The notes below the pieces were generated by a model that was given only the letters and a program-made list of their open reading frames with translations, searched no databases and was not told the origin of the DNA. From Hufsiella arboris (GTDB lineage: Bacteria; Bacteroidota; Bacteroidia; Sphingobacteriales; Sphingobacteriaceae): a DNA stretch of 64,000 bases. The position numbers and the translations under genes were made by a program. Positions 2,552 through 45,749 of the stretch are shown piece after piece; position 1 is the first letter of the stretch, and each line of letters starts with the position of its first letter. Where the stretch lies: contig NZ_WVHT01000005.1 of assembly GCF_009834875.1 (NCBI RefSeq), positions 186,001 to 250,000 on the forward strand, given 5' to 3'.

Positions 2552-3823
2552 ATGAAAAAAGATAAACTGATCTTCAATCTTATCGAAGAAGAATTAGAAA
2601 GACAGGAAACCGGTATTGAACTGATTGCGTCTGAGAATTTTGTAAGTAAGCAGGTAATGGAAGCCGCGGGATCTGTTTTAACGAACAAATACGCGGAAGG
2701 CCTGCCCGGCAAACGTTACTATGGCGGTTGCGAAGTTGTCGACGAGATTGAAACTATAGCGATCGAACGCGCGAAGCAACTATTCAATGCAGAATGGGTT
2801 AACGTACAGCCACATTCAGGCGCACAGGCAAATGCCGCAGTTTTTTTAGCCTTACTACAGGCTGGCGACAAAATTCTGGGTTTTGATCTTTCACATGGCG
2901 GGCACCTTACTCACGGATCGCCGGTTAATTTTTCAGGAAGATTGTATCAGCCATTCTTTTACGGCGTTGACAGAGAAACCGGCCTTGTTGACTATGCAAA
3001 GCTGGAAGAAGTTGCGTTACGGGAAAAGCCTAAAGTGATTATTTGCGGAGCATCGGCTTATTCCAGGGATTGGGATTATGCTTTTATCCGCCGGGTTGCT
3101 GATCAGGTAGGCGCTTTGGTTGTGGCTGATATTTCACACCCCGCAGGTCTTATAGCTCGCGGACTTCTTACCGATCCGCTTCCTCATTGCCATGTGGTAA
3201 CAACCACTACTCATAAAACATTGCGCGGCCCGAGGGGTGGAATGATCATGATGGGGAAGGATTTTGAAAACCCATTTGGTTTAAAAACACCGAAAGGCGA
3301 GTTGAAGATGATGTCGTCCTTGTTAGACATGGGTGTGTTCCCTGGAACGCAAGGCGGGCCGCTCGAGCATATCATTGCGGCGAAAGCCGTTGCTTTTGGC
3401 GAGGCTTTGAGCGAATCATATATGAAGTACATCATCCAGGTTAAGAAAAATGCCGACGCGATGGCTCAGGCTTTCGTGGCTAAAGGCTACCAGATTATTT
3501 CGGGAGGAACGGACAATCACCTGATGCTGATCGATCTCCGCAACAAAAATATAACTGGTAAGGCAGCGGAAAACGCTTTAGAGGCAGCTGGAATCACTGC
3601 CAATAAAAACATGGTTCCTTACGATGATAAATCACCTTTTGTAACTTCCGGAATACGTTTCGGTACCGCGGCGATTACTACCAGAGGCCTTAAGGAAAAG
3701 CATATGGAAAAGATCGTTGACCTGATTGATGATGTTATCACAGACCCACAAAGCGAACCTCATATTAAAAAAATCCGTAAAAAGGTTCATGAAATGATGG
3801 AGAGTCATCCACTTTACAAATAA
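2552..3823 (+). CDS. glyA: Serine hydroxymethyltransferase
   Basis: This PLP enzyme interconverts serine and glycine while charging tetrahydrofolate with a one-carbon unit; it is cytoplasmic and fold-type I. Visible features are the N-terminal ELIASENF signature, the KRYYGG segment, and the PLP lysine in [14 protein letters not shown] (Lys222 from this start). It is 423 residues, the usual size. The start at 2552 (MKKDKLIF) matches the family N-terminus; an in-frame ATG at 2519 would add eleven polar residues and cannot be excluded. Its product glycine feeds the glycine cleavage system, whose GcvH is encoded about 30 kb further on. Confidence 0.96.
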
Positions 3824-3854
3824 AATTTACAAATTAGCTGTGAGCGTGTGACTA

Positions 3855-6611
3855 ATGCAAAACGAAATCAGCGAAAAAAAGCGATTACAAGTCCTGGAAG
3901 ATTACCAGGTCATGGATACCGGCACCGAAAAGGAGTTTGACGCCATCACGCGCCTGGCGTCATACATCTGCAGTACGCCGGTTGCTTTAATTACGCTGAT
4001 TGACAGTTACCGTCAATGGTTCAAATCGAAGTACGGAACGGAAAAAACCGAAACCTCCAGGGAAATTGCTTTTTGCAGGTACACGATCCTTGGAGATGAA
4101 GTTTTTGAAGTCGCCGATGCCTTTGAAGATGATCGTTTTGCAAATAATCCGCTTGTTACCGGCGATCCCAATATCCGGTTCTACGCCGGTGCGCCCCTAA
4201 TTTCACCTTCTGGTTATAAATTAGGATCGTTATGCGTAATTGACACCATTCCACGTAACCTGACGGCCCAGCAAAAGGACGCGCTGCAAACCTTAGCCGA
4301 TGAAGTTATCACCCGCCTGGAGGTTTCACGCAAAAATCGACTGTTAGAGGAATCATTGAACCGCTATGTGGAATTCAGCACGATGTTTAATACGTCGGGC
4401 GAGCTGCACTGTGTGTTGGATGACAGAACCAGAATCACGCTGATTAACCAAACCGCTATCGATATACTTGGATACACGGAATCCGAGGCGATTGGTAAAA
4501 GTATCTGGGATTTTTGTTTATCTGATGACTGCGAGCGAATCGTTCCTTTAGTTGAAGAAGGTTTACGTAATAATGTCAAAAATTTCGAAATCGAAACTCG
4601 TATCAGAACCAAGCAGGGAGAGATTAAGTGGATCAGCTGGACGGTTTCAGTTCAGAGCAGGAAGTGGTTTGTAAACGGACGTGATGTTACTGAACACAAG
4701 GAAATAGCCGCGCAAGCGGAAATGCTTTCGGCCGTGGCCAGTAAGATCGATAATGGCGTGATCATCAGTAAATACAACGAAGTCGTATGGGTCAATGCAG
4801 CATTCGAGAAAATCACCGGGTATAACATAGAGGAAATCAGGGGAAAAAAACTAGGTGACATTTTAAGAGGTGAGGAAACCGATATTGGAATAATCGAAAA
4901 AGCCCGCGAATATACCCGTAATAAAAAGTCGTTCGAGGTTGATATACTGGCATATCGGAAAGACGGAGCCCCGATCTGGCTGTCTGTTATGAATTCTATT
5001 ATTCTCGGCCCTGATGGTGAAATTGATAAGGAAGTAGAGATTATCACCGATATAACCGAAAGAAAGAGATCGGAAATCCGGTATCAAACCCTGTCAATGG
5101 CGGCGAGTAAAACATCCACCGGCGTTGTGATCAGAAGCGCCGACGGCGAACTAATGTGGATGAATAAAGCAGTGGAGTTAATCACCGGTTATTCATTGGA
5201 AGATGTACAGGGCAAACAGGTAGGCGATCTGTTAGTCGGGGAGAAAACTAACAAAGAGGTATTCGAGTCGGCGACAAAGGCTCTAAAGAACCATAAATCC
5301 TACACAATAGAACTGGAAATATACCGCAAAACTGGTGAACCTCTTTGGGTGAATCTGTCCAACGATCCGATTTTTGACGATACAGGGAAACTGGAACGTC
5401 ATATCAGCATCATCACAGATATTACTGAAAGAAAAGCCGTGGAAATGGAACTCATTAAAACACGTGAGGAAGCCATTGCGCTCAGTAAATCGAAGGAAAT
5501 GTATCTGTCTGTAATGAGCCACGAGATACGCACACCTATAAGTGCGGTTGTCGGTCTGACGAATATTCTCCTCGACGATAAACCAAAAGAATCACAGCTC
5601 GAAAATTTAAACATACTGAAGTTTTCGGCCGAAAATCTTTTACTTCTCTTAAATGACATCCTGGATTTTTCTAAAATCGAAAATGGAAAAATTGAGTTTC
5701 ATGAGTCGGAAGTAAATTTAAAGATGCTAACGGGTCATATCATAGATACTTTTCAATACAGCCTGAAAAATAAGAATGTTGTATTGAAAGCGGATATCGA
5801 TCCGGAATTGCCCGAATTTATTATTGCTGATCAAACCCGCATTTACCAGATAATCATTAACCTTATCGGGAATTCAGTAAAGTTCACCAATGAAGGCGAA
5901 ATTTCCCTTTCCGTCAAAGTGACTGAAATTGCTGAAAACGACATTGGCATATTATTCAAAATCCGAGACACAGGCATAGGTATTCAGGCTGAAAAGCTGG
6001 AACATATTTTCGAGGCTTATGCGCAGGCGGAGACCGACATTGCAACGAAATACGGTGGTACAGGGCTTGGGCTGCCGATTACAAAAAAACTTATTGAACT
6101 CTATGGATCTGAGATTTTTGTGAATAGCGAAGTTGGAAAGGGTTCTGAGTTTTCTTTTGAAATTAAGTTCAAAAGAAATAAGACATTAAAACCCGAGCTA
6201 AAGCATCCTAAAGAAGAAGATAAACGGCAAATGCAAGGTATCGTACTGGTAGTAGACGACAACGAAATTAACCGCTTACTTGCGAAGAAAATGCTCTCCA
6301 AATGGGGTTTGCAAACCGACTTCGCTGAGAATGGGAGAGAGGCCCTTGAAAAAATCGGTAGGCAAAGCTATGATATTGTGTTAATGGATATTCAAATGCC
6401 AGTACTCAACGGCATTGAAGCTGCCAGGCAGATCAGAACCCTGCCGGGGCAATATTTCTCAGAGCTTCCGATAGTTGCACTTACTGCATCAATAATGAAC
6501 GAACAAATAGAAGATATTAAGAAATCTGGCATGGATGACTATCTTCTAAAACCTTTCTCCGTAGATGCTTTATTTGAGAAAATAGACAAGTACCTGCATC
6601 TAAGTACCTAA
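3855..6611 (+). CDS. Hybrid sensor histidine kinase GAF-PAS-PAS-PAS-HisKA-HATPase-REC
   Basis: A 918-residue kinase with no signal peptide or membrane segment, so it should sense a cytoplasmic signal. Domains in order are GAF (about 20-160), three PAS repeats each followed by a PAC-like end (about 170-285, 288-405, 410-530), HisKA with phospho-accepting His556 in SHEIRTP, HATPase with the N-box around Asn673 and G-boxes DTGIGI and GGTGLGL, and a receiver domain (about 795-915) with the DD pair in VVDDNEINR and phospho-acceptor Asp845 in LMDIQMP. No response regulator or output gene is adjacent, so its partner is unknown. A strong terminator follows directly. The second and third PAS domains look like recent duplicates. 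Confidence 0.93.
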   Translation: MQNEISEKKRLQVLEDYQVMDTGTEKEFDAITRLASYICSTPVALITLIDSYRQWFKSKYGTEKTETSREIAFCRYTILGDEVFEVADAFEDDRFANNPLVTGDPNIRFYAGAPLISPSGYKLGSLCVIDTIPRNLTAQQKDALQTLADEVITRLEVSRKNRLLEESLNRYVEFSTMFNTSGELHCVLDDRTRITLINQTAIDILGYTESEAIGKSIWDFCLSDDCERIVPLVEEGLRNNVKNFEIETRIRTKQGEIKWISWTVSVQSRKWFVNGRDVTEHKEIAAQAEMLSAVASKIDNGVIISKYNEVVWVNAAFEKITGYNIEEIRGKKLGDILRGEETDIGIIEKAREYTRNKKSFEVDILAYRKDGAPIWLSVMNSIILGPDGEIDKEVEIITDITERKRSEIRYQTLSMAASKTSTGVVIRSADGELMWMNKAVELITGYSLEDVQGKQVGDLLVGEKTNKEVFESATKALKNHKSYTIELEIYRKTGEPLWVNLSNDPIFDDTGKLERHISIITDITERKAVEMELIKTREEAIALSKSKEMYLSVMSHEIRTPISAVVGLTNILLDDKPKESQLENLNILKFSAENLLLLLNDILDFSKIENGKIEFHESEVNLKMLTGHIIDTFQYSLKNKNVVLKADIDPELPEFIIADQTRIYQIIINLIGNSVKFTNEGEISLSVKVTEIAENDIGILFKIRDTGIGIQAEKLEHIFEAYAQAETDIATKYGGTGLGLPITKKLIELYGSEIFVNSEVGKGSEFSFEIKFKRNKTLKPELKHPKEEDKRQMQGIVLVVDDNEINRLLAKKMLSKWGLQTDFAENGREALEKIGRQSYDIVLMDIQMPVLNGIEAARQIRTLPGQYFSELPIVALTASIMNEQIEDIKKSGMDDYLLKPFSVDALFEKIDKYLHLST

Positions 6612-37329: not shown

Positions 37330-37632
37330 ATGACTTCTGAAGAGATAATCAATTATCTAAGCGCAAATAAAGACGTTTTAAAAAGTTATCATGTTAATAG
37401 AATTGGACTGTTTGGATCATACTCAAAAGGATTGCAAACGGCTCAAAGTGATATCGATTTGCTCGTTGAATATTTACCTGGTAAAAAATCTTTTGATGAA
37501 TTTTCAGCTTTAATTGATACCCTCGAAAATGAATTTGGGAAAAATGTTGAGTTAGTAACCAGAGAATCAACTACACCATCTTTTTATGAACAGATAAAGC
37601 ATGATCTAAAGTATGTCCAAATCAATTATTGA
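37330..37632 (+). CDS. mntA: MntA-type nucleotidyltransferase antitoxin
   Basis: A 100-residue minimal nucleotidyltransferase. The signature GSX10DXD is exact: Gly29-Ser30, ten residues, Asp41-Ile-Asp43; the third acidic residue is probably Glu74 (NVELVT). In characterised pairs MntA neutralises the HEPN partner by adding AMP groups to a tyrosine next to its RNase motif. The gene overlaps the next by 20 bases and looks AT-richer than feoB and sprT around it, consistent with recent acquisition. The order, antitoxin first, differs from the best-studied hepT–mntA pair. Confidence 0.9.
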   Translation: MTSEEIINYLSANKDVLKSYHVNRIGLFGSYSKGLQTAQSDIDLLVEYLPGKKSFDEFSALIDTLENEFGKNVELVTRESTTPSFYEQIKHDLKYVQINY

Positions 37633-37912
37633 ATTTTTAATTCATATTCAAACTGAAACAGGCTTTATACTTAAATCATCAGCTGATAAATCTTTCGACG
37701 ATCTATTAAACGATTCCATTTGGCAAAGAGCAGTAATTCGAAGCCTTGAAGTGATTGGCGAAACTGCAAAAAAAATAGATTCAGATTTTCGCTTGAAACA
37801 TTCAAAGGTCGAATGGATTGCGATGTCGAAAATGAGGGACAAACTCATTCATCACTATTTTGAATCCATCGCGCTGTTGATTTCTGATCTTAAAAATTCT
37901 GAGCATGGATAA
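37613..37912 (+). CDS. hepT: HepT-type HEPN RNase toxin (DUF86)
   Basis: A 99-residue helical HEPN protein. It has the complete RX4HXY active-site motif at Arg75–His80–Tyr82 (RDKLIHHY), where Arg and His would cleave RNA and the tyrosine is the AMP acceptor for MntA. It starts 20 bases inside mntA and ends 8 bases inside the SprT-like gene, so all three are probably translated from one message. The motif is intact, so I expect an active toxin; the RNA target is unknown. Confidence 0.9.
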   Translation: MSKSIIEFLIHIQTETGFILKSSADKSFDDLLNDSIWQRAVIRSLEVIGETAKKIDSDFRLKHSKVEWIAMSKMRDKLIHHYFESIALLISDLKNSEHG

Positions 37913-41262: not shown

Positions 41263-41775
41263 TTACAAATCAACAATGTCCGACTTGCCGTTACTTTCCA
41301 GCGGCTGATTGTTTGTTGACACGGTTGGCACATCCTGGTTCTGTAAACGTGGAGCCAGTGTGTTTTCCCTGGCAACCATGTCAGCGATTGAGGTCTCACC
41401 AAGGATTTTAAGGGTTGCGTCGCGCACGTCCTTCATTACATCGCGAATGCCGCAGTATGTTTCAGTACATTCCTCACAACGTTCATAAAAGTTTAAGCTG
41501 ACACAAGGTAAGAGTGCGATTGGGCCATCTATTACACGGATAATAGACGACATTTTGATTTCGGAAGCCTGTTTTAACAAATAATAACCGCCGCCTGCAC
41601 CTTTTTTGCTGCCCAGATAGCCACTTCTTTTAAGTTCGAGCAGAATGGCTTCCAGGAATTTTTTAGGAAGTTGTTCTTTTTCCGCAATGTCAGAAATCAA
41701 CATCGGGTGTTTCTCTTCATTTCTGGCTAATGCAATGAGCGCTTTGAATGCGTATTTTGCTTTTTTCGTTAACAA
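41263..41775 (-). CDS. Rrf2 family transcriptional regulator with four-cysteine cluster
   Basis: A 170-residue winged-helix regulator with the family N-terminus KKAKYAFKALIALARNE and recognition segment LPKKFLEAILLELKRSGYL. The middle carries Cys91, Cys100, Cys103 and Cys108, so it may bind an iron–sulfur cluster and sense sulfur, redox or iron state; the spacing differs from IscR. The C-terminal 35 residues are polar and probably disordered. The start is TTG at 41775. Gene position downstream of the sulfite reductase and siroheme genes suggests it controls them, but that is inference. Confidence 0.88.
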   Translation of the reverse strand: MLTKKAKYAFKALIALARNEEKHPMLISDIAEKEQLPKKFLEAILLELKRSGYLGSKKGAGGGYYLLKQASEIKMSSIIRVIDGPIALLPCVSLNFYERCEECTETYCGIRDVMKDVRDATLKILGETSIADMVARENTLAPRLQNQDVPTVSTNNQPLESNGKSDIVDL

Positions 41776-41858: not shown

Positions 41859-42467
41859 TCACCTTCCGGCGCTTTGATCCGGCGACAGATTTTTAGTTAG
41901 TTTATCAAGCTGCCTTACTTTTTCCGCAAAATCTCCTTTAAGGTTATCACGAATAGCTGAGATGTTTGAGAGCAATGAATCCATTTCATCCGGTAACGCG
42001 GCATTTAAAGTTTCTTTTAAACGCTTGGCTACGGTTGGCGATTTTCCGTTTGTGGAGATCGCGACTTTCAGGTTTCCTTTTTTCACAACCGACCCCAGGT
42101 AAAAATCACATTGCGCTGGCGTGTCTGCAACATTCGCCAGTACATTCCTTCCGGCACAGGCTTCTTTAATCTGCCGGCTGGCGTCGTGGTCGTTAACTGC
42201 GATTATTGCCAGATTAACGCCCTCTAAATCATTTTCGTAAAACGGCCGTTCTTCGTAAGGAATTTTATGATCGCTTAAAAAAGCTCTTGTCAGATTGAAG
42301 ATATCAATAGCTACCAGTTTCACACGGGCATTAGGACTGTTTTTAAAGATCGCTTCCAGCTTTTCGAGCGCCACATTTCCACCGCCTACCAGTAAAAGAT
42401 TAAGATTTTCCAGTTTCAAAAAAACCGGAAAAAGCGTGTTACCGTCCTCGATGTTATTCGCTTGCAT
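41859..42467 (-). CDS. Siroheme synthase N-domain: precorrin-2 dehydrogenase/ferrochelatase
   Basis: A 202-residue Met8p/CysG-N-type protein that oxidises precorrin-2 with NAD and inserts iron to give siroheme. It has the Rossmann GGGNVALEKLEAIF loop and the STNGKSPTVAKRLKE segment. The CysG methyltransferase domain is missing, so a separate uroporphyrinogen methyltransferase must exist elsewhere. It lies fifteen bases after the sulfite reductase gene, which needs siroheme: a clear functional pairing. The ATG at 42467 follows an in-frame GTG one codon earlier. Confidence 0.92.
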   Translation of the reverse strand: MQANNIEDGNTLFPVFLKLENLNLLLVGGGNVALEKLEAIFKNSPNARVKLVAIDIFNLTRAFLSDHKIPYEERPFYENDLEGVNLAIIAVNDHDASRQIKEACAGRNVLANVADTPAQCDFYLGSVVKKGNLKVAISTNGKSPTVAKRLKETLNAALPDEMDSLLSNISAIRDNLKGDFAEKVRQLDKLTKNLSPDQSAGR

Positions 42468-42482
42468 CACGCAATTTACATT

Positions 42483-44579
42483 TTAAACAGCCAGCTGTGC
42501 CTGGCGGAATTCCACCAGCTTTTCTTTGAATAAGGTGGATTGTTCCAGGTAATATTCGGCAAACTCGCGGGAAGGTTCCTGCTGATTGATTTGATAAACC
42601 AATTCAGTGAAACTCAACGGCAGAGATATTTTATCTTCGGCAACAAATATTTCTTCAAAGTCTTTTACAATGCCTGCCTGTGAATTTGTTTTTTGACCTT
42701 CGGAAACTAAAATCGCTTTTGCTGCCTGGATGAAGCCTGTATAAGCGTGATAAATCGAGTCTGCATAATCGCCTTTTTGAAACGACTCGCGCGATTCGGC
42801 AATTTTATCATCTGCTTCCAGAAACAATGTCGCAACAAGGTCAATCATTACGCCGGCACACTCGCCGATTCCGATCTCTGGCTTATAGGGTTCTGTTTGT
42901 CCCCAATCAATAAAATCATCATCGGTAATATTTTCTTGTTTGGCCAGCGGATTCAGCAAGTCGTAAAAGTAAATTTTGCCCTGCCTGTTATAGTATTGAT
43001 TAAACGTTTCGTCTTCCTGTGCCTGATTGGCAAAGTCTTCAAAAAGCACACGTAGCGCTTGTGGTCCGCGTTTGCTTGGGATTTTAATAACCTTGTCTGA
43101 TGCCACGCCTGTTCCGTTACCAGTTGGGCCGCCGCCAAGAAGTACCTGAAGTGCTGGTGCAACAAGTTTACCTATTTTCATGCTCGATCCGTGGAAACCA
43201 ATAGCAGCCATGGCGTGTTGTCCGCAGGCGTTGATACAACCGCTAATTTTAATCGTGATATCCTTGTTATAGATCAGGTCCGGATATTCATTTATTATTA
43301 TTTTTTCAAGTTCGCGAGTGATTCCGGTACTGTTTGAAATCCCCAGGTTACAGGTATCAGTGCCCGGGCAGGAAGTTATATCGACAACACTTTCAAATCC
43401 GGGATCGGCCAGTCCGAGTTCGTCAAGTTTCTGAAAAGTATAAGCAAGATTTTCTTCACGGACATATTTAAGTAGAATGCCTTGTGTATTTGTCAGGCGA
43501 ATATCGTCGGCTGCTACCTCGTTTACCAGCAAAGCCAGCCTGCGGGCAATCGGAGTTTTTATATCTCCGTTTGTTATTTTAATTCCAATTGCAAAAAAGC
43601 CGTCCTGTTTTTGAGCGGTTACGTTTGTTCTTCGCCATTGTTCAAATTTTCCAGGGTTTTTAATTTCTGCGACTAAACTCTTTTCTTCCGGCAATACAAC
43701 CTCTTCAGTCTCGCGTTGGATTTTATATGTTTTATTTTTCAGCGCCAGTCTTTCCTCGTCTGCAAGACGCAAAAATTCCTCTACACCAATATCCTGGATC
43801 AAATATTTTAATCGCGCCTTATTTCGCTTTGTTCGTTCACCGTAACGGTCAAAAATCCGTAACACGGACTCTGCGAAGGGAATAATCTGATCTTCGTGCA
43901 TAAAATCGGTAACGGGCAAAGCGATATGTGGCTGTGAACCCAGCCCACCACCGATAACAACCTTAAAGCCACGAATTTCTTCGCCATTTTCGAATTTTAC
44001 TTTAGGAATAAATCCAAGATCATGCATGAAAGTATATGCAGTATCGCTTTCGGATGAAGTAAACGCGATCTTAAACTTACGTCCCATATCCTGGCAAACA
44101 GGATTACGTAAAAAGTATTCGAAAAAACCTTGCGCGTAAGGACTCACATCAAAGGCTTCGGCCGGATCTATTCCGGCCATGGCAGATGCCGTAACATTTC
44201 GAACGGTATTTCCACAGGCTTCGCGAAGTGTAACATCATCCTGCTCGAGTTCTGACCAGAGCTGAGGCGTTCTGTCGAGGTTTACGAAGTGGATTTGAAT
44301 ATCCTGACGAGTTGTAATATGTAAATTTCCGGTAGCGTACTCATCTGATACATCAGAGATCCGGTTAAGCTGCTTGACAGTAACTTTGCCATAAGGGAGC
44401 TTAATCCGCACCATTTGTACGCCCTGTTGTCGTTGTCCGTAAACACCGCGGGCAAGTCTCAGGCTTCTGAACTTTTCGTCACTTATCTTTCCCTCGTGAA
44501 ATAAACGGATCTTTTTCTCAAGCTCAATGATATCCTTTTCAACAACCGGGTTTTCCAGCTCCGTTCTGAAACTTTGCAT
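42483..44579 (-). CDS. Assimilatory nitrite/sulfite reductase with HEPN-like C-terminal extension
   Basis: A 698-residue siroheme and [4Fe-4S] reductase that takes six electrons to sulfite (or nitrite). Tandem ferredoxin-like repeats (ITTRQDIQIHFV and ITSC-type) and the cluster cysteines in SCPGTDTCNLG and GCINACGQH are present. Beyond about residue 590 there is an additional helical region, with FQKGDYADSIYHAYTGF and IQAAKAILV, that looks like a HEPN helix bundle without the RNase motif; this makes the protein longer than most sulfite reductases. Siroheme synthase next door favours sulfite as substrate with a separate electron donor, probably ferredoxin. Confidence 0.9.
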   Translation of the reverse strand: MQSFRTELENPVVEKDIIELEKKIRLFHEGKISDEKFRSLRLARGVYGQRQQGVQMVRIKLPYGKVTVKQLNRISDVSDEYATGNLHITTRQDIQIHFVNLDRTPQLWSELEQDDVTLREACGNTVRNVTASAMAGIDPAEAFDVSPYAQGFFEYFLRNPVCQDMGRKFKIAFTSSESDTAYTFMHDLGFIPKVKFENGEEIRGFKVVIGGGLGSQPHIALPVTDFMHEDQIIPFAESVLRIFDRYGERTKRNKARLKYLIQDIGVEEFLRLADEERLALKNKTYKIQRETEEVVLPEEKSLVAEIKNPGKFEQWRRTNVTAQKQDGFFAIGIKITNGDIKTPIARRLALLVNEVAADDIRLTNTQGILLKYVREENLAYTFQKLDELGLADPGFESVVDITSCPGTDTCNLGISNSTGITRELEKIIINEYPDLIYNKDITIKISGCINACGQHAMAAIGFHGSSMKIGKLVAPALQVLLGGGPTGNGTGVASDKVIKIPSKRGPQALRVLFEDFANQAQEDETFNQYYNRQGKIYFYDLLNPLAKQENITDDDFIDWGQTEPYKPEIGIGECAGVMIDLVATLFLEADDKIAESRESFQKGDYADSIYHAYTGFIQAAKAILVSEGQKTNSQAGIVKDFEEIFVAEDKISLPLSFTELVYQINQQEPSREFAEYYLEQSTLFKEKLVEFRQAQLAV

Positions 44580-44789: not shown

Positions 44790-45749
44790 ATGTCTGTAAA
44801 TATTCCAAGGCTTGATTTGAACGATTACATTAACGGATCGGCCGAGCAAAAGAAAAAATTCTCTGATGACATTGGCAAGGCTTTCAACGAAACTGGTTTT
44901 GTCACGATTGCCAATCACGGCATGACACAGGAATTAATGGACAATTTATATAAGCAGGTTAAGCGATTTTTTGACCTTCCGGAAGATGTGAAGCATCATT
45001 ACGAAAAGCCCGAATTAGCCGGGCAACGTGGTTACACAAGTAAAGGACGCGAAAAGGCAAAAGATTCGAAAACGCCTGACCTGAAAGAATTCTGGCAGCG
45101 CGGGCAAACGGTAAAAGACAACGACCCGGTTAAAAATGAATATCCGGACAACGTAATAGTAGATGAAGTGTCTGAATTTAATGAGATAACTACTACTGTT
45201 TATGAAAAGCTTGAATATGCCGGTAAGTATTTATTGCGCGCAATTGCCGTTTATTTAGGCCTTGACGAAAACTATTTCGACGATAAAGTACATAACGGTA
45301 ATTCGATCTTACGTGCAATCCATTACTTCCCGATTGAAAATCCGGAATCGATCTCACCTGATGCTGTGAGAGCCGGCGCGCATGAAGATATTAACCTCAT
45401 TACTTTGCTTATCGGAGCAAGCGCTGACGGATTGGAAGTGCTTACGGCAGATGGACAATGGTTCCCGGTACAATCCAAAGGTGAGGATATAGTGGTAAAC
45501 GTAGGCGACATGCTCCAGCGTTTAACCAATAACAAGCTTAAGTCGACAACTCACAGGGTTGTCAATCCACCGCGTGAGTTAATGAAGACTTCGAGGTATT
45601 CGGTACCTTTCTTTTTGCATCCGAAATCGGGTATGGATCTAACGTCACTTGAATCGTGTATTGACGAAAGTCACCCAAAACTTTACCCGGATGTTACTGC
45701 CGGAGAATATCTTGACGAGCGTTTGCGTGAGATCGGCCTGAAAATGTAA
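44790..45749 (+). CDS. Isopenicillin N synthase-like 2-oxoglutarate/Fe(II) oxygenase
   Basis: A 319-residue protein with the DIOX_N domain (about 5-120, FNETGFVTIANHGM) and the catalytic jelly roll with the iron triad His in GAHEDINLITLL, Asp two residues later, and the His of STTHRVVNPP; the 2-oxoglutarate/substrate arginine follows in SRYSVPFF. It is a complete enzyme, but its substrate is unknown and no biosynthetic genes surround it. A terminator follows immediately. Confidence 0.9.
   Translation: MSVNIPRLDLNDYINGSAEQKKKFSDDIGKAFNETGFVTIANHGMTQELMDNLYKQVKRFFDLPEDVKHHYEKPELAGQRGYTSKGREKAKDSKTPDLKEFWQRGQTVKDNDPVKNEYPDNVIVDEVSEFNEITTTVYEKLEYAGKYLLRAIAVYLGLDENYFDDKVHNGNSILRAIHYFPIENPESISPDAVRAGAHEDINLITLLIGASADGLEVLTADGQWFPVQSKGEDIVVNVGDMLQRLTNNKLKSTTHRVVNPPRELMKTSRYSVPFFLHPKSGMDLTSLESCIDESHPKLYPDVTAGEYLDERLREIGLKM

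What the first reader, a model, noticed from the sequence alone, without database searches (positions are those of the whole stretch)
42483..44579. Sulfite reductase carrying a HEPN-like helical C-terminal extension
About the last 110 residues do not belong to the siroheme reductase fold. FQKGDYADSIYHAYTGF and IQAAKAILV have the look of HEPN helices, without the RX4-6H motif. A fused, non-catalytic HEPN domain on a metabolic enzyme would be a nucleotide-binding or dimerising regulatory module.
Basis: inference. Interest (0 to 1): 0.5.

Follow-up and report, generated by a model that had tools for sequence, protein, structure and literature searches.

The report
Sulfite reductase with HEPN and cysteine tail
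A Bacteroidota enzyme that supplies sulfide for building amino acids carries at its end an RNA-toxin-like HEPN domain without its cutting motif, fused directly behind an invariant cysteine tail that may take part in the enzyme's chemistry.

Summary
The 698-residue reductase (minus strand, 44579-42483) ends in a genuine HEPN domain: Pfam PF05168 above its curated cut-off, a sequence match to the solved HEPN protein AF0298, and a predicted fold for that region whose best matches are HEPN structures (Z 15-16). It lacks Rx4-6H. The extension is common: 52 of 395 phylum genomes have the enzyme full length. A 2013 HEPN census probably lists the fusion in one table row, as a fusion to 'ferredoxin domains'. 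The enzyme is most likely an assimilatory sulfite reductase: it sits beside siroheme and, in relatives, sulfate-assimilation genes, is the genome's only siroheme reductase found, and 51 of 52 such genomes lack a strong CysJ match. Less expected is an invariant Gly-Glu-Cys-Ala motif between core and HEPN (121 of 121 sequences complete there). In two HEPN-less relatives (Thermus oshimai; one genome of the phylum) the protein ends right there (…GECAV). None of 20 other siroheme reductases compared has it. HEPN therefore looks appended to an older C-terminal cysteine tail. I infer that HEPN holds or positions this tail; dimerisation, ligand sensing or donor docking are not excluded. Known kind, new variant.

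The parts
42945..44579 (-). siroheme/[4Fe-4S] sulfite reductase core, residues 1-545 (two NIR_SIR_ferr and two NIR_SIR half domains)
   Evidence: PF01077 E 4.6e-43 and PF03460 E 3.8e-33, two stretches each; model residues within 35-545 match SiR/NiR structures, Z up to 30.9
43350..43370 (-). first cluster-ligand pair C404/C410 (C-x5-C); ligand role from the known family motif
   Evidence: C in 122 of 122 compared sequences; coordinates
43224..43238 (-). second cluster-ligand pair C448/C452 (C-x3-C); ligand role from the known family motif
   Evidence: C in 122 of 122; coordinates
44214..44216 (-). invariant non-cluster cysteine C122 (REACG), aligned with the EACG cysteine of M. tuberculosis NirA
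   Evidence: 122 of 122; the same residue in the Thermus protein aligns with chain position 172 of 1zj8 by my count on the printed alignment
42855..42866 (-). GECA motif, residues 572-575, with C574; C-terminal end of two HEPN-less relatives, linker in this protein
   Evidence: GECA in 121 of 121 sequences complete at this end; C574 is one of two invariant non-cluster cysteines in 21 deep rows; coordinates
42486..42848 (-). HEPN domain, residues 578-698
   Evidence: PF05168 over cut-off at residues 585-676; 2hsb E 0.001; fold match to 2hsb Z 16.0 in the full model and 15.4 in the domain model
41859..42470 (-). siroheme synthase N-terminal type (precorrin-2 dehydrogenase/ferrochelatase), next gene in the same direction
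   Evidence: TIGR01470 118 bits, cut-off 62.3; its ORF family is present in 71 of 81 loci
41263..41775 (-). Rrf2-family regulator
   Evidence: PF02082 and TIGR00738 over cut-off; below the CymR and IscR equivalog cut-offs; its ORF family in 28 of 81 loci

Best explanation
Shown: a siroheme reductase of the sulfite/nitrite family with a HEPN domain that lacks the RNase motif, fused directly behind an invariant cysteine motif (GECA) which is the very C-terminus in two HEPN-less relatives. Strongly indicated by context: it is a CysJ-independent assimilatory sulfite reductase. Inferred: HEPN acts as a structural clamp, not an RNase. In the domain model the GECA cysteine lies at the start of HEPN helix 1, so HEPN would fix the otherwise free tail near the siroheme channel and may also pair two subunits. 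Inferred further: the cysteine tail takes part in sulfite reduction or product release, as a thiol lid, proton relay or sulfur acceptor. Electrons probably come from ferredoxin or a similar small donor.
For: HEPN identity. No Rx4-6H in the window protein; the alternative AF0298 histidine aligns with Q634 (Q in 85, H in 21 of 122). GECA in 121 of 121 complete sequences; in 21 deep rows, seven of which have cores 33-51% identical to each other, G572-A575 are the only invariant columns between 502 and 575. HEPN-less members end at GECAV: Thermus oshimai and genome G039. None of 20 other siroheme reductases compared contains GECA. Domain model: first helix from fragment residue 11, i.e. protein residue 571. 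Sulfate-assimilation context and two PAPS_reduct proteins side by side in the same genome. One NIR_SIR protein and no CysJ match in the genome.
Against: No distance between C574 and the siroheme was measured. In the full-length model residues 570-577 have pLDDT under 50 and helix 1 starts at 581, so the helix-start placement of C574 is not reproduced there. HEPN is not needed for the tail to be kept, since Thermus and G039 lack it. Of three of the deepest extensions scanned (P0003, L097, L098) none is recognised by Pfam, and P0005 and L100 score under the HEPN cut-off; L147 and L148 were not scanned. No ferredoxin gene is consistently next to the reductase.
Confidence: 0.45

Rival explanations
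1. The HEPN domain is an allosteric sensor or dimerisation module: it binds a nucleotide such as APS, PAPS or PAP and tunes sulfite reduction, with no direct link to the GECA cysteine.
For: The domain's name stands for nucleotide-binding (PMC3710099, passages), and the HEPN domain of sacsin is a fold match (Z 13.0 and 13.2). The pathway upstream uses adenine nucleotides; CysD-, CysN- and CysH-type genes are neighbours in 24, 30 and 23 of 81 loci. Family-specific invariant HEPN residues exist in the 47-row Bacteroidota alignment, e.g. D607, P669, F673 and R692.
Against: No ligand evidence of any kind. D607, P669 and R692 are not kept in the deepest HEPN-side rows.
Confidence: 0.25
2. HEPN is a docking platform for the electron donor (ferredoxin or flavodoxin), replacing the CysJ flavoprotein.
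For: 51 of 52 genomes with the full-length enzyme have no CysJ match of 300 bits or more, while the 18 genomes of the window's class with such a match all have a siroheme reductase that matches the query only weakly.
Against: Thermus and G039 have the same enzyme type without HEPN. No ferredoxin co-occurs at the locus in a motif scan of 81 loci, apart from isolated hits. [quoted passage not shown]
Confidence: 0.12
3. HEPN binds RNA and moonlights in translation or mRNA control.
For: HEPN domains without catalytic residues are proposed to be nucleic-acid binders (PMC3710099, passages read). Four of seven relatives found in a deep class carry R-x5-H near the canonical place.
Against: The window protein lacks the motif; nothing in the common neighbour families concerns RNA.
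Confidence: 0.05
4. The enzyme is really an assimilatory nitrite reductase, as public records annotate one relative.
For: A full-length relative is annotated 'nitrite reductase', another 'nitrite/sulfite reductase'; the nearest NCBIfam models are NirA and ferredoxin-nitrite reductase, both far under their cut-offs.
Against: Sulfate-assimilation neighbours in relatives, PAPS_reduct proteins in the same genome, no second NIR_SIR protein, and the HEPN-less Thermus relative lies in an operon with phosphoadenylyl-sulfate reductase and sulfate adenylyltransferase. I did not search the genome for nitrate reductase.
Confidence: 0.06

Closest known systems
HEPN-T family 'Cpin_6617' of Anantharaman et al. 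2013 (PMC3710099, Table 1; passages read)
   Same: HEPN lacking Rx4-6H, with fusions 'to a dyad of ferredoxin domains' (Bacteroidetes, Nitrospirae), which probably means the two ferredoxin-like half domains of SiR (my inference; accessions not checked).
   Different: The row does not call the partner a sulfite reductase; the words reductase, siroheme and sulfite do not occur at a word start in that paper's main text. No cysteine tail is mentioned in the passages read.
AF0298 / UPF0332 HEPN protein (PDB 2hsb)
   Same: Closest solved HEPN by sequence profile (E 0.001) and by fold (Z 15.4-16.0).
   Different: Stand-alone protein of 126 residues; has an alternative histidine (PMC3710099) that aligns with Gln634 of the window protein.
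M. tuberculosis NirA (PDB 1zj8)
   Same: Siroheme/[4Fe-4S] fold (Z 30.5); its EACG cysteine aligns with C122 (via the Thermus protein). Its Tyr69-Cys161 crosslink is recalled, not from a call.
   Different: No GECA seen; the alignment ends at chain residue 563 of 566. No HEPN.
Thermus oshimai nitrite/sulfite reductase WP_015065284.1
   Same: Same reductase subfamily with the GECA motif, in a sulfate-assimilation operon.
   Different: 574 aa; ends at GECAV; no HEPN.
DsrC carrier of dissimilatory sulfite reductase
   Same: A sulfur acceptor working next to siroheme: S0 is passed on as DsrC-SSH or DsrC trisulfide (PMC13188885 and PMC10229431, passages). That this uses conserved C-terminal cysteines on an arm is recalled.
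   Different: DsrC is a separate protein; homology was not tested. PMC13188885 states that no evidence so far involves DsrC in assimilatory reduction.
E. coli CysIJ
   Same: Assimilatory sulfite reduction by the same core fold (Z about 30).
   Different: CysI works with the flavoprotein CysJ; no HEPN. The four CysI-like rows checked near CysJ genes in the phylum or class (L161, L162, L170 and their kind) have no GECA; E. coli CysI itself was not aligned at its C-terminus.

Membership tests
HEPN domain (PF05168) | curated profile score | tested here: met
   24.7 bits, cut-off 22
HEPN domain (PF05168) | HEPN helical-bundle fold | tested here: met
   domain model pLDDT 90.4; top rows are HEPN chains, 2hsb Z 15.4, rmsd 2.9, 118 aligned
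HEPN ribonuclease | Rx4-6H motif | tested here: not met
   absent from residues 577-698. In relatives with an extension the string occurs in 28 of 120, 25 of these at offsets I judge non-canonical
HEPN ribonuclease, AF0298-type alternative site | alternative conserved histidine | tested here: not met
   aligned residue is Q634; H in 21 of 122 sequences
MNT/HEPN pair | adjacent or fused minimal nucleotidyltransferase | tested here: not met
   no nucleotidyltransferase adjoins or is fused to the reductase; the MNT-HepT pair at 37330-37912 is about 5 kb away with its own HEPN
siroheme sulfite/nitrite reductase | two NIR_SIR_ferr/NIR_SIR repeats and four cluster cysteines | tested here: met
siroheme sulfite/nitrite reductase | anion-binding Arg/Arg/Lys/Lys of the siroheme pocket (roles recalled from CysI) | tested here: met
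   R58, R127, K168, K170 in 122 of 122
assimilatory sulfite reductase | reduces sulfite in vivo | not testable with these tools
   context only
CysIJ-type sulfite reductase | CysJ flavoprotein partner | tested here: not met
   no TIGR01931 match in the window's genome; of 52 enzyme-bearing genomes 1 has a match of 300 bits or more (threshold mine, curated cut-off 668)
DsrC-like sulfur carrier (works like) | conserved cysteine in a flexible C-terminal arm | tested here: inconclusive
   C574 invariant, and C-terminal in two HEPN-less relatives; in the window protein it is internal, with pLDDT under 50 at 570-577 of the full model, which suggests but does not show flexibility
DsrC-like sulfur carrier (works like) | cysteine reaches the siroheme and forms a persulfide or trisulfide | not testable with these tools
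   no coordinates or chemistry available
DsrC family | sequence or fold homology to DsrC | not tested
   no comparison run

The most novel reading that the evidence does not exclude
The GECA cysteine is a built-in sulfur-carrier arm, an intramolecular counterpart of DsrC: the reductase leaves its product (S0 level) as a persulfide on C574, and in Bacteroidota the HEPN domain was recruited to hold that arm at the siroheme and to present the persulfide to acceptors. Assimilatory sulfite reduction in these organisms would then run through a protein-bound persulfide, not free sulfide.
Probability: 0.13. Interest if true: 0.75.

Novelty: new variant of a known kind. Interest (0 to 1): 0.45.

Why it matters
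A domain known mainly from RNA-cutting toxins has become a regular part of a core metabolic enzyme in many Bacteroidota. The invariant cysteine tail it is attached to gives a specific residue to test in a live question: a 2026 paper (PMC13188885; abstract, one results section and passages read) reports S0, not sulfide, as the direct product of four assimilatory reductases and says no evidence involves a DsrC-like carrier there. A one-residue mutant of this enzyme type would test whether a carrier is built in.

Tried and rejected
Rejected: that the extension is a frame artefact. In 52 phylum genomes the match runs through the extension in an open frame; the one short case (L130, genome G200) is cut by a contig end.

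Rejected as evidence for RNase activity: regex hits of Rx4-6H in 28 of 120 relatives with an extension. Of these, 15, 9 and 1 start 32, 67 and 120 residues after GECA, outside the place that I judge canonical from the 2hsb alignment; three related sequences have it at 91. In their class, of seven matches found, four (L142-L145) have R-x5-H there; L146 (whose match holds one in-frame stop), L147 and L148 do not.

Led nowhere: a scan for ferredoxin, flavodoxin and thioredoxin motifs in small ORFs of 81 loci (isolated hits only, mostly implausible frames; L030 and L075 look like real ferredoxins); clustering of ORFs of 60-150 aa (the families listed look like shadow ORFs); a DNA pattern for GECA in the genome (15 matches against 9 of the reversed control, no use). 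Paper searches in the held open-access library: HEPN domain with sulfite reductase (one unrelated fungal paper), HEPN with Bacteroidetes and nitrite reductase (none), HEPN with sulfate assimilation (none), UPF0332 with HEPN (none), assimilatory sulfite reductase with Bacteroidetes and three more terms (none), sulfite reductase with C-terminal cysteine (two papers, listing only, not on this). Cys161 with siroheme gave none, so the NirA crosslink stays recalled. CysJ over all 395 genomes is not itself a strong statistic (1 of 52 against 22 of 343); the point is only that it cannot be the usual partner. Weaker TIGR01931 matches (up to 211 bits, G249) occur in many of the 52 genomes and probably are other flavoproteins; only 4 of 395 genomes pass the curated cut-off.

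Full report
1. The gene. The ORF at 42483-44579 is on the minus strand and encodes 698 aa. Pfam finds two NIR_SIR_ferr and two NIR_SIR stretches and a HEPN domain, PF05168, at residues 585-676 with 24.7 bits against a cut-off of 22. No NCBIfam reductase model reaches its cut-off; the best is the NirA family, 241 of 523 bits. The window's genome has 4.80 Mb in 56 contigs and is 99.97% complete. The nearest row in the tree is a Pedobacter.

2. HEPN is real. Of 58 aligned sequences (window plus 57 relatives), 54 match PF05168 at E <= 0.1, and all 58 match both reductase families. A profile of 47 extensions hits the solved HEPN protein AF0298 (2hsb) at E 0.001 and two other HEPN proteins at 0.009-0.010. 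The full-length AlphaFold2 model (mean pLDDT 84.4, pTM 0.84) matches siroheme reductases within residues 35-545 (Z up to 30.9) and HEPN chains over about 578-696: 2hsb Z 16.0, rmsd 2.7, 117 aligned; 1wol 14.6; 1o3u 14.1; sacsin HEPN 13.0. The domain alone (residues 561-698, pLDDT 90.4, pTM 0.82) gives nearly the same leading rows, 2hsb Z 15.4, rmsd 2.9, 118 aligned; the first clearly unrelated row, a designed protein, has Z 9.3. VIA-align re-ranks Foldseek's hits and is not an independent search.

3. HEPN without its active site. The window domain has no Rx4-6H. The alternative histidine of AF0298-type HEPN aligns with Q634; over 122 distinct sequences (the window's own copy among them) that column is Q 85, H 21, Y 9, with E, D and gaps for the rest. 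So the domain is probably not an RNase. In a deep class of the phylum, where 7 of 146 genomes have a match, four of the seven proteins (L142-L145) have R-x5-H near the canonical place and three (L146-L148) do not; with shared ancestry this is a lead, not a result.

4. How common. In 395 genomes drawn from the phylum (window's genome included), 52 have the enzyme matched from within the first 15 residues to residue 682 or beyond; all are in the window's family or class. One more is cut by a contig end (G200), five more distant ones carry a C-terminal extension (G254, G219, G030, G074, G188), and one (G039) has the enzyme without HEPN. The extensions of G219, G074 and G188 are not recognised by Pfam and are called HEPN-like only from alignment A2. 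A scan of named genomes confirmed 205 related stretches, of which the best 80 were kept; 58 sequences went into A1 and 47 into A3, so A1 and A3 are selected sets.

5. Context. Among 81 loci (window included; some with short flanks), ORF families near the reductase occur in: siroheme synthase N 71, SUMT 52, CysN 30, Rrf2 28, CysD 24, CysH 23, a homoserine sulfhydrylase-like enzyme 20, OsmC 14. One representative each was checked: CysN, CysD, CysH and SUMT pass NCBIfam cut-offs, the sulfhydrylase and OsmC ones do not. The window has the siroheme synthase and Rrf2 genes downstream. The genome has PAPS_reduct domains in frames of 236 and 304 aa side by side on another contig, as expected for CysH and CysD (naming by size and order), and NIR_SIR only in this protein. 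Full-length relatives on Aureibacter and Persicobacter plasmids are annotated 'nitrite reductase' and 'nitrite/sulfite reductase' and sit beside cobA and siroheme synthase.

6. Not a CysIJ enzyme. CysJ (TIGR01931) matches of 300 bits or more (my threshold; 4 genomes pass the curated 668) occur in 23 of 395 genomes. I compared them with the 52 by typed lists: the overlap is one genome, G182, which also has a separate 594-aa reductase beside its CysJ. The 18 such genomes in the window's class all have a siroheme reductase with only a weak match to the query. G219, with a distant HEPN-like enzyme, also has CysJ. Weaker matches, up to 211 bits in G249, occur in many of the 52. So CysJ is not the usual donor; ferredoxin is inferred. 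The genome has Fer4 proteins, e.g. one of 118 aa.

7. The cysteine tail. GECA (residues 572-575) is present in 121 of 122 distinct sequences; the exception is the contig-cut one. The best HEPN columns, A620 and F641, reach 119 of 120. In 21 deliberately divergent members (seven sampled cores are 33-51% identical to each other) 69 columns are invariant; six are cysteines: four cluster ligands, C122 and C574. After P501 only G572, E573, C574 and A575 are invariant; because two of the 21 rows end at GECAV, no column beyond 575 could count. HEPN-less members end there: G039 ...GEGECAV, followed by a sulfurtransferase-like ORF and a CysH-like ORF (ORF names by eye); Thermus oshimai JL-2 WP_015065284.1 ...GRGECAV, in an operon with siroheme genes, phosphoadenylyl-sulfate reductase and sulfate adenylyltransferase. 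The C122 column in those is C 12, G 4, S 2, E 2, so C122 is not specific to this subfamily. Through the Thermus protein C122 aligns with the EACG cysteine of M. tuberculosis NirA, chain position 172 by my count; that this is the Cys161 crosslinked to Tyr69 next to siroheme is recalled.

8. History. A tree of cores cut before GECA (48 rows, 13 of them without GECA, IQ-TREE) puts all 35 GECA rows on one side and needs one change for HEPN, but the deep branches are weak (65/51 for the GECA split, 30/46 for HEPN) and long-branch warnings were given. Reading: tail first, HEPN added once behind it; loss in G039 is not excluded.

9. Mechanism. Shown: domain identity, missing RNase motif, invariant tail, context. 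Inferred: HEPN clamps or presents the tail. In the domain model the first helix begins at residue 571, making C574 a helix-start residue; in the full model residues 570-577 are below pLDDT 50 and the helix starts at 581. A 2026 study reports S0 as direct product of four assimilatory reductases and no evidence of DsrC there (PMC13188885; abstract, results section 6 and passages read); its representatives are CysIJ, MET5/MET10, Sir1 and a Ruegeria enzyme, and whether any is of this subfamily I did not test. That gives the novel case a place to be tested but is no evidence for it.

10. Known or new. The fusion is very probably the 'HEPN-T (Cpin_6617)' row in the 2013 HEPN census: no Rx4-6H, 'fusions to a dyad of ferredoxin domains', Bacteroidetes and Nitrospirae (PMC3710099, passages read); I could not check its accessions. 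Searches for papers naming a HEPN sulfite reductase found none that does (held open-access library only). I did not find the GECA tail described (same limit; two of the papers listed there were read in passages or sections, the others only as listing).

Counts were recomputed; it corrected the Rx4-6H denominator (120 relatives, not 121) and added the C122 counts.

Noticed in passing
37330-37912 (+): A separate MNT (PF01909) and HepT-like (PF01934) pair; the HepT keeps RDKLIHHYF (R-x4-H) but is only 99 aa and looks short at its C-terminus, overlapping the next gene.
   Followed up: partly
L142-L145 (class of G219): HEPN-like extensions of deep relatives keep R-x5-H at about the canonical place in four of seven proteins found there; these might still be RNases or relics.
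   Followed up: partly
L147, L148 (G410, G405): GECA reductases 41-42% identical to the Thermus one carry a very divergent extension after GECA, not scanned with Pfam.
   Followed up: no
L159 (Halomontanus rarus plasmid, 2957-5497): Haloarchaeal siroheme reductase in a protein annotated 'rhodanese-like domain-containing', followed by an F420 hydrogenase/dehydrogenase beta-subunit gene.
   Followed up: no
L096 (G039): HEPN-less GECA reductase followed by a sulfurtransferase-like ORF, a small ORF and a CysH-like ORF containing ECGLH near its end, another mobile-cysteine motif (role recalled).
   Followed up: no
44790-45749 (+): Divergently transcribed 2OG-Fe(II) oxygenase next to the reductase; its ORF family is near the reductase in 8 of 81 loci.
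   Followed up: no
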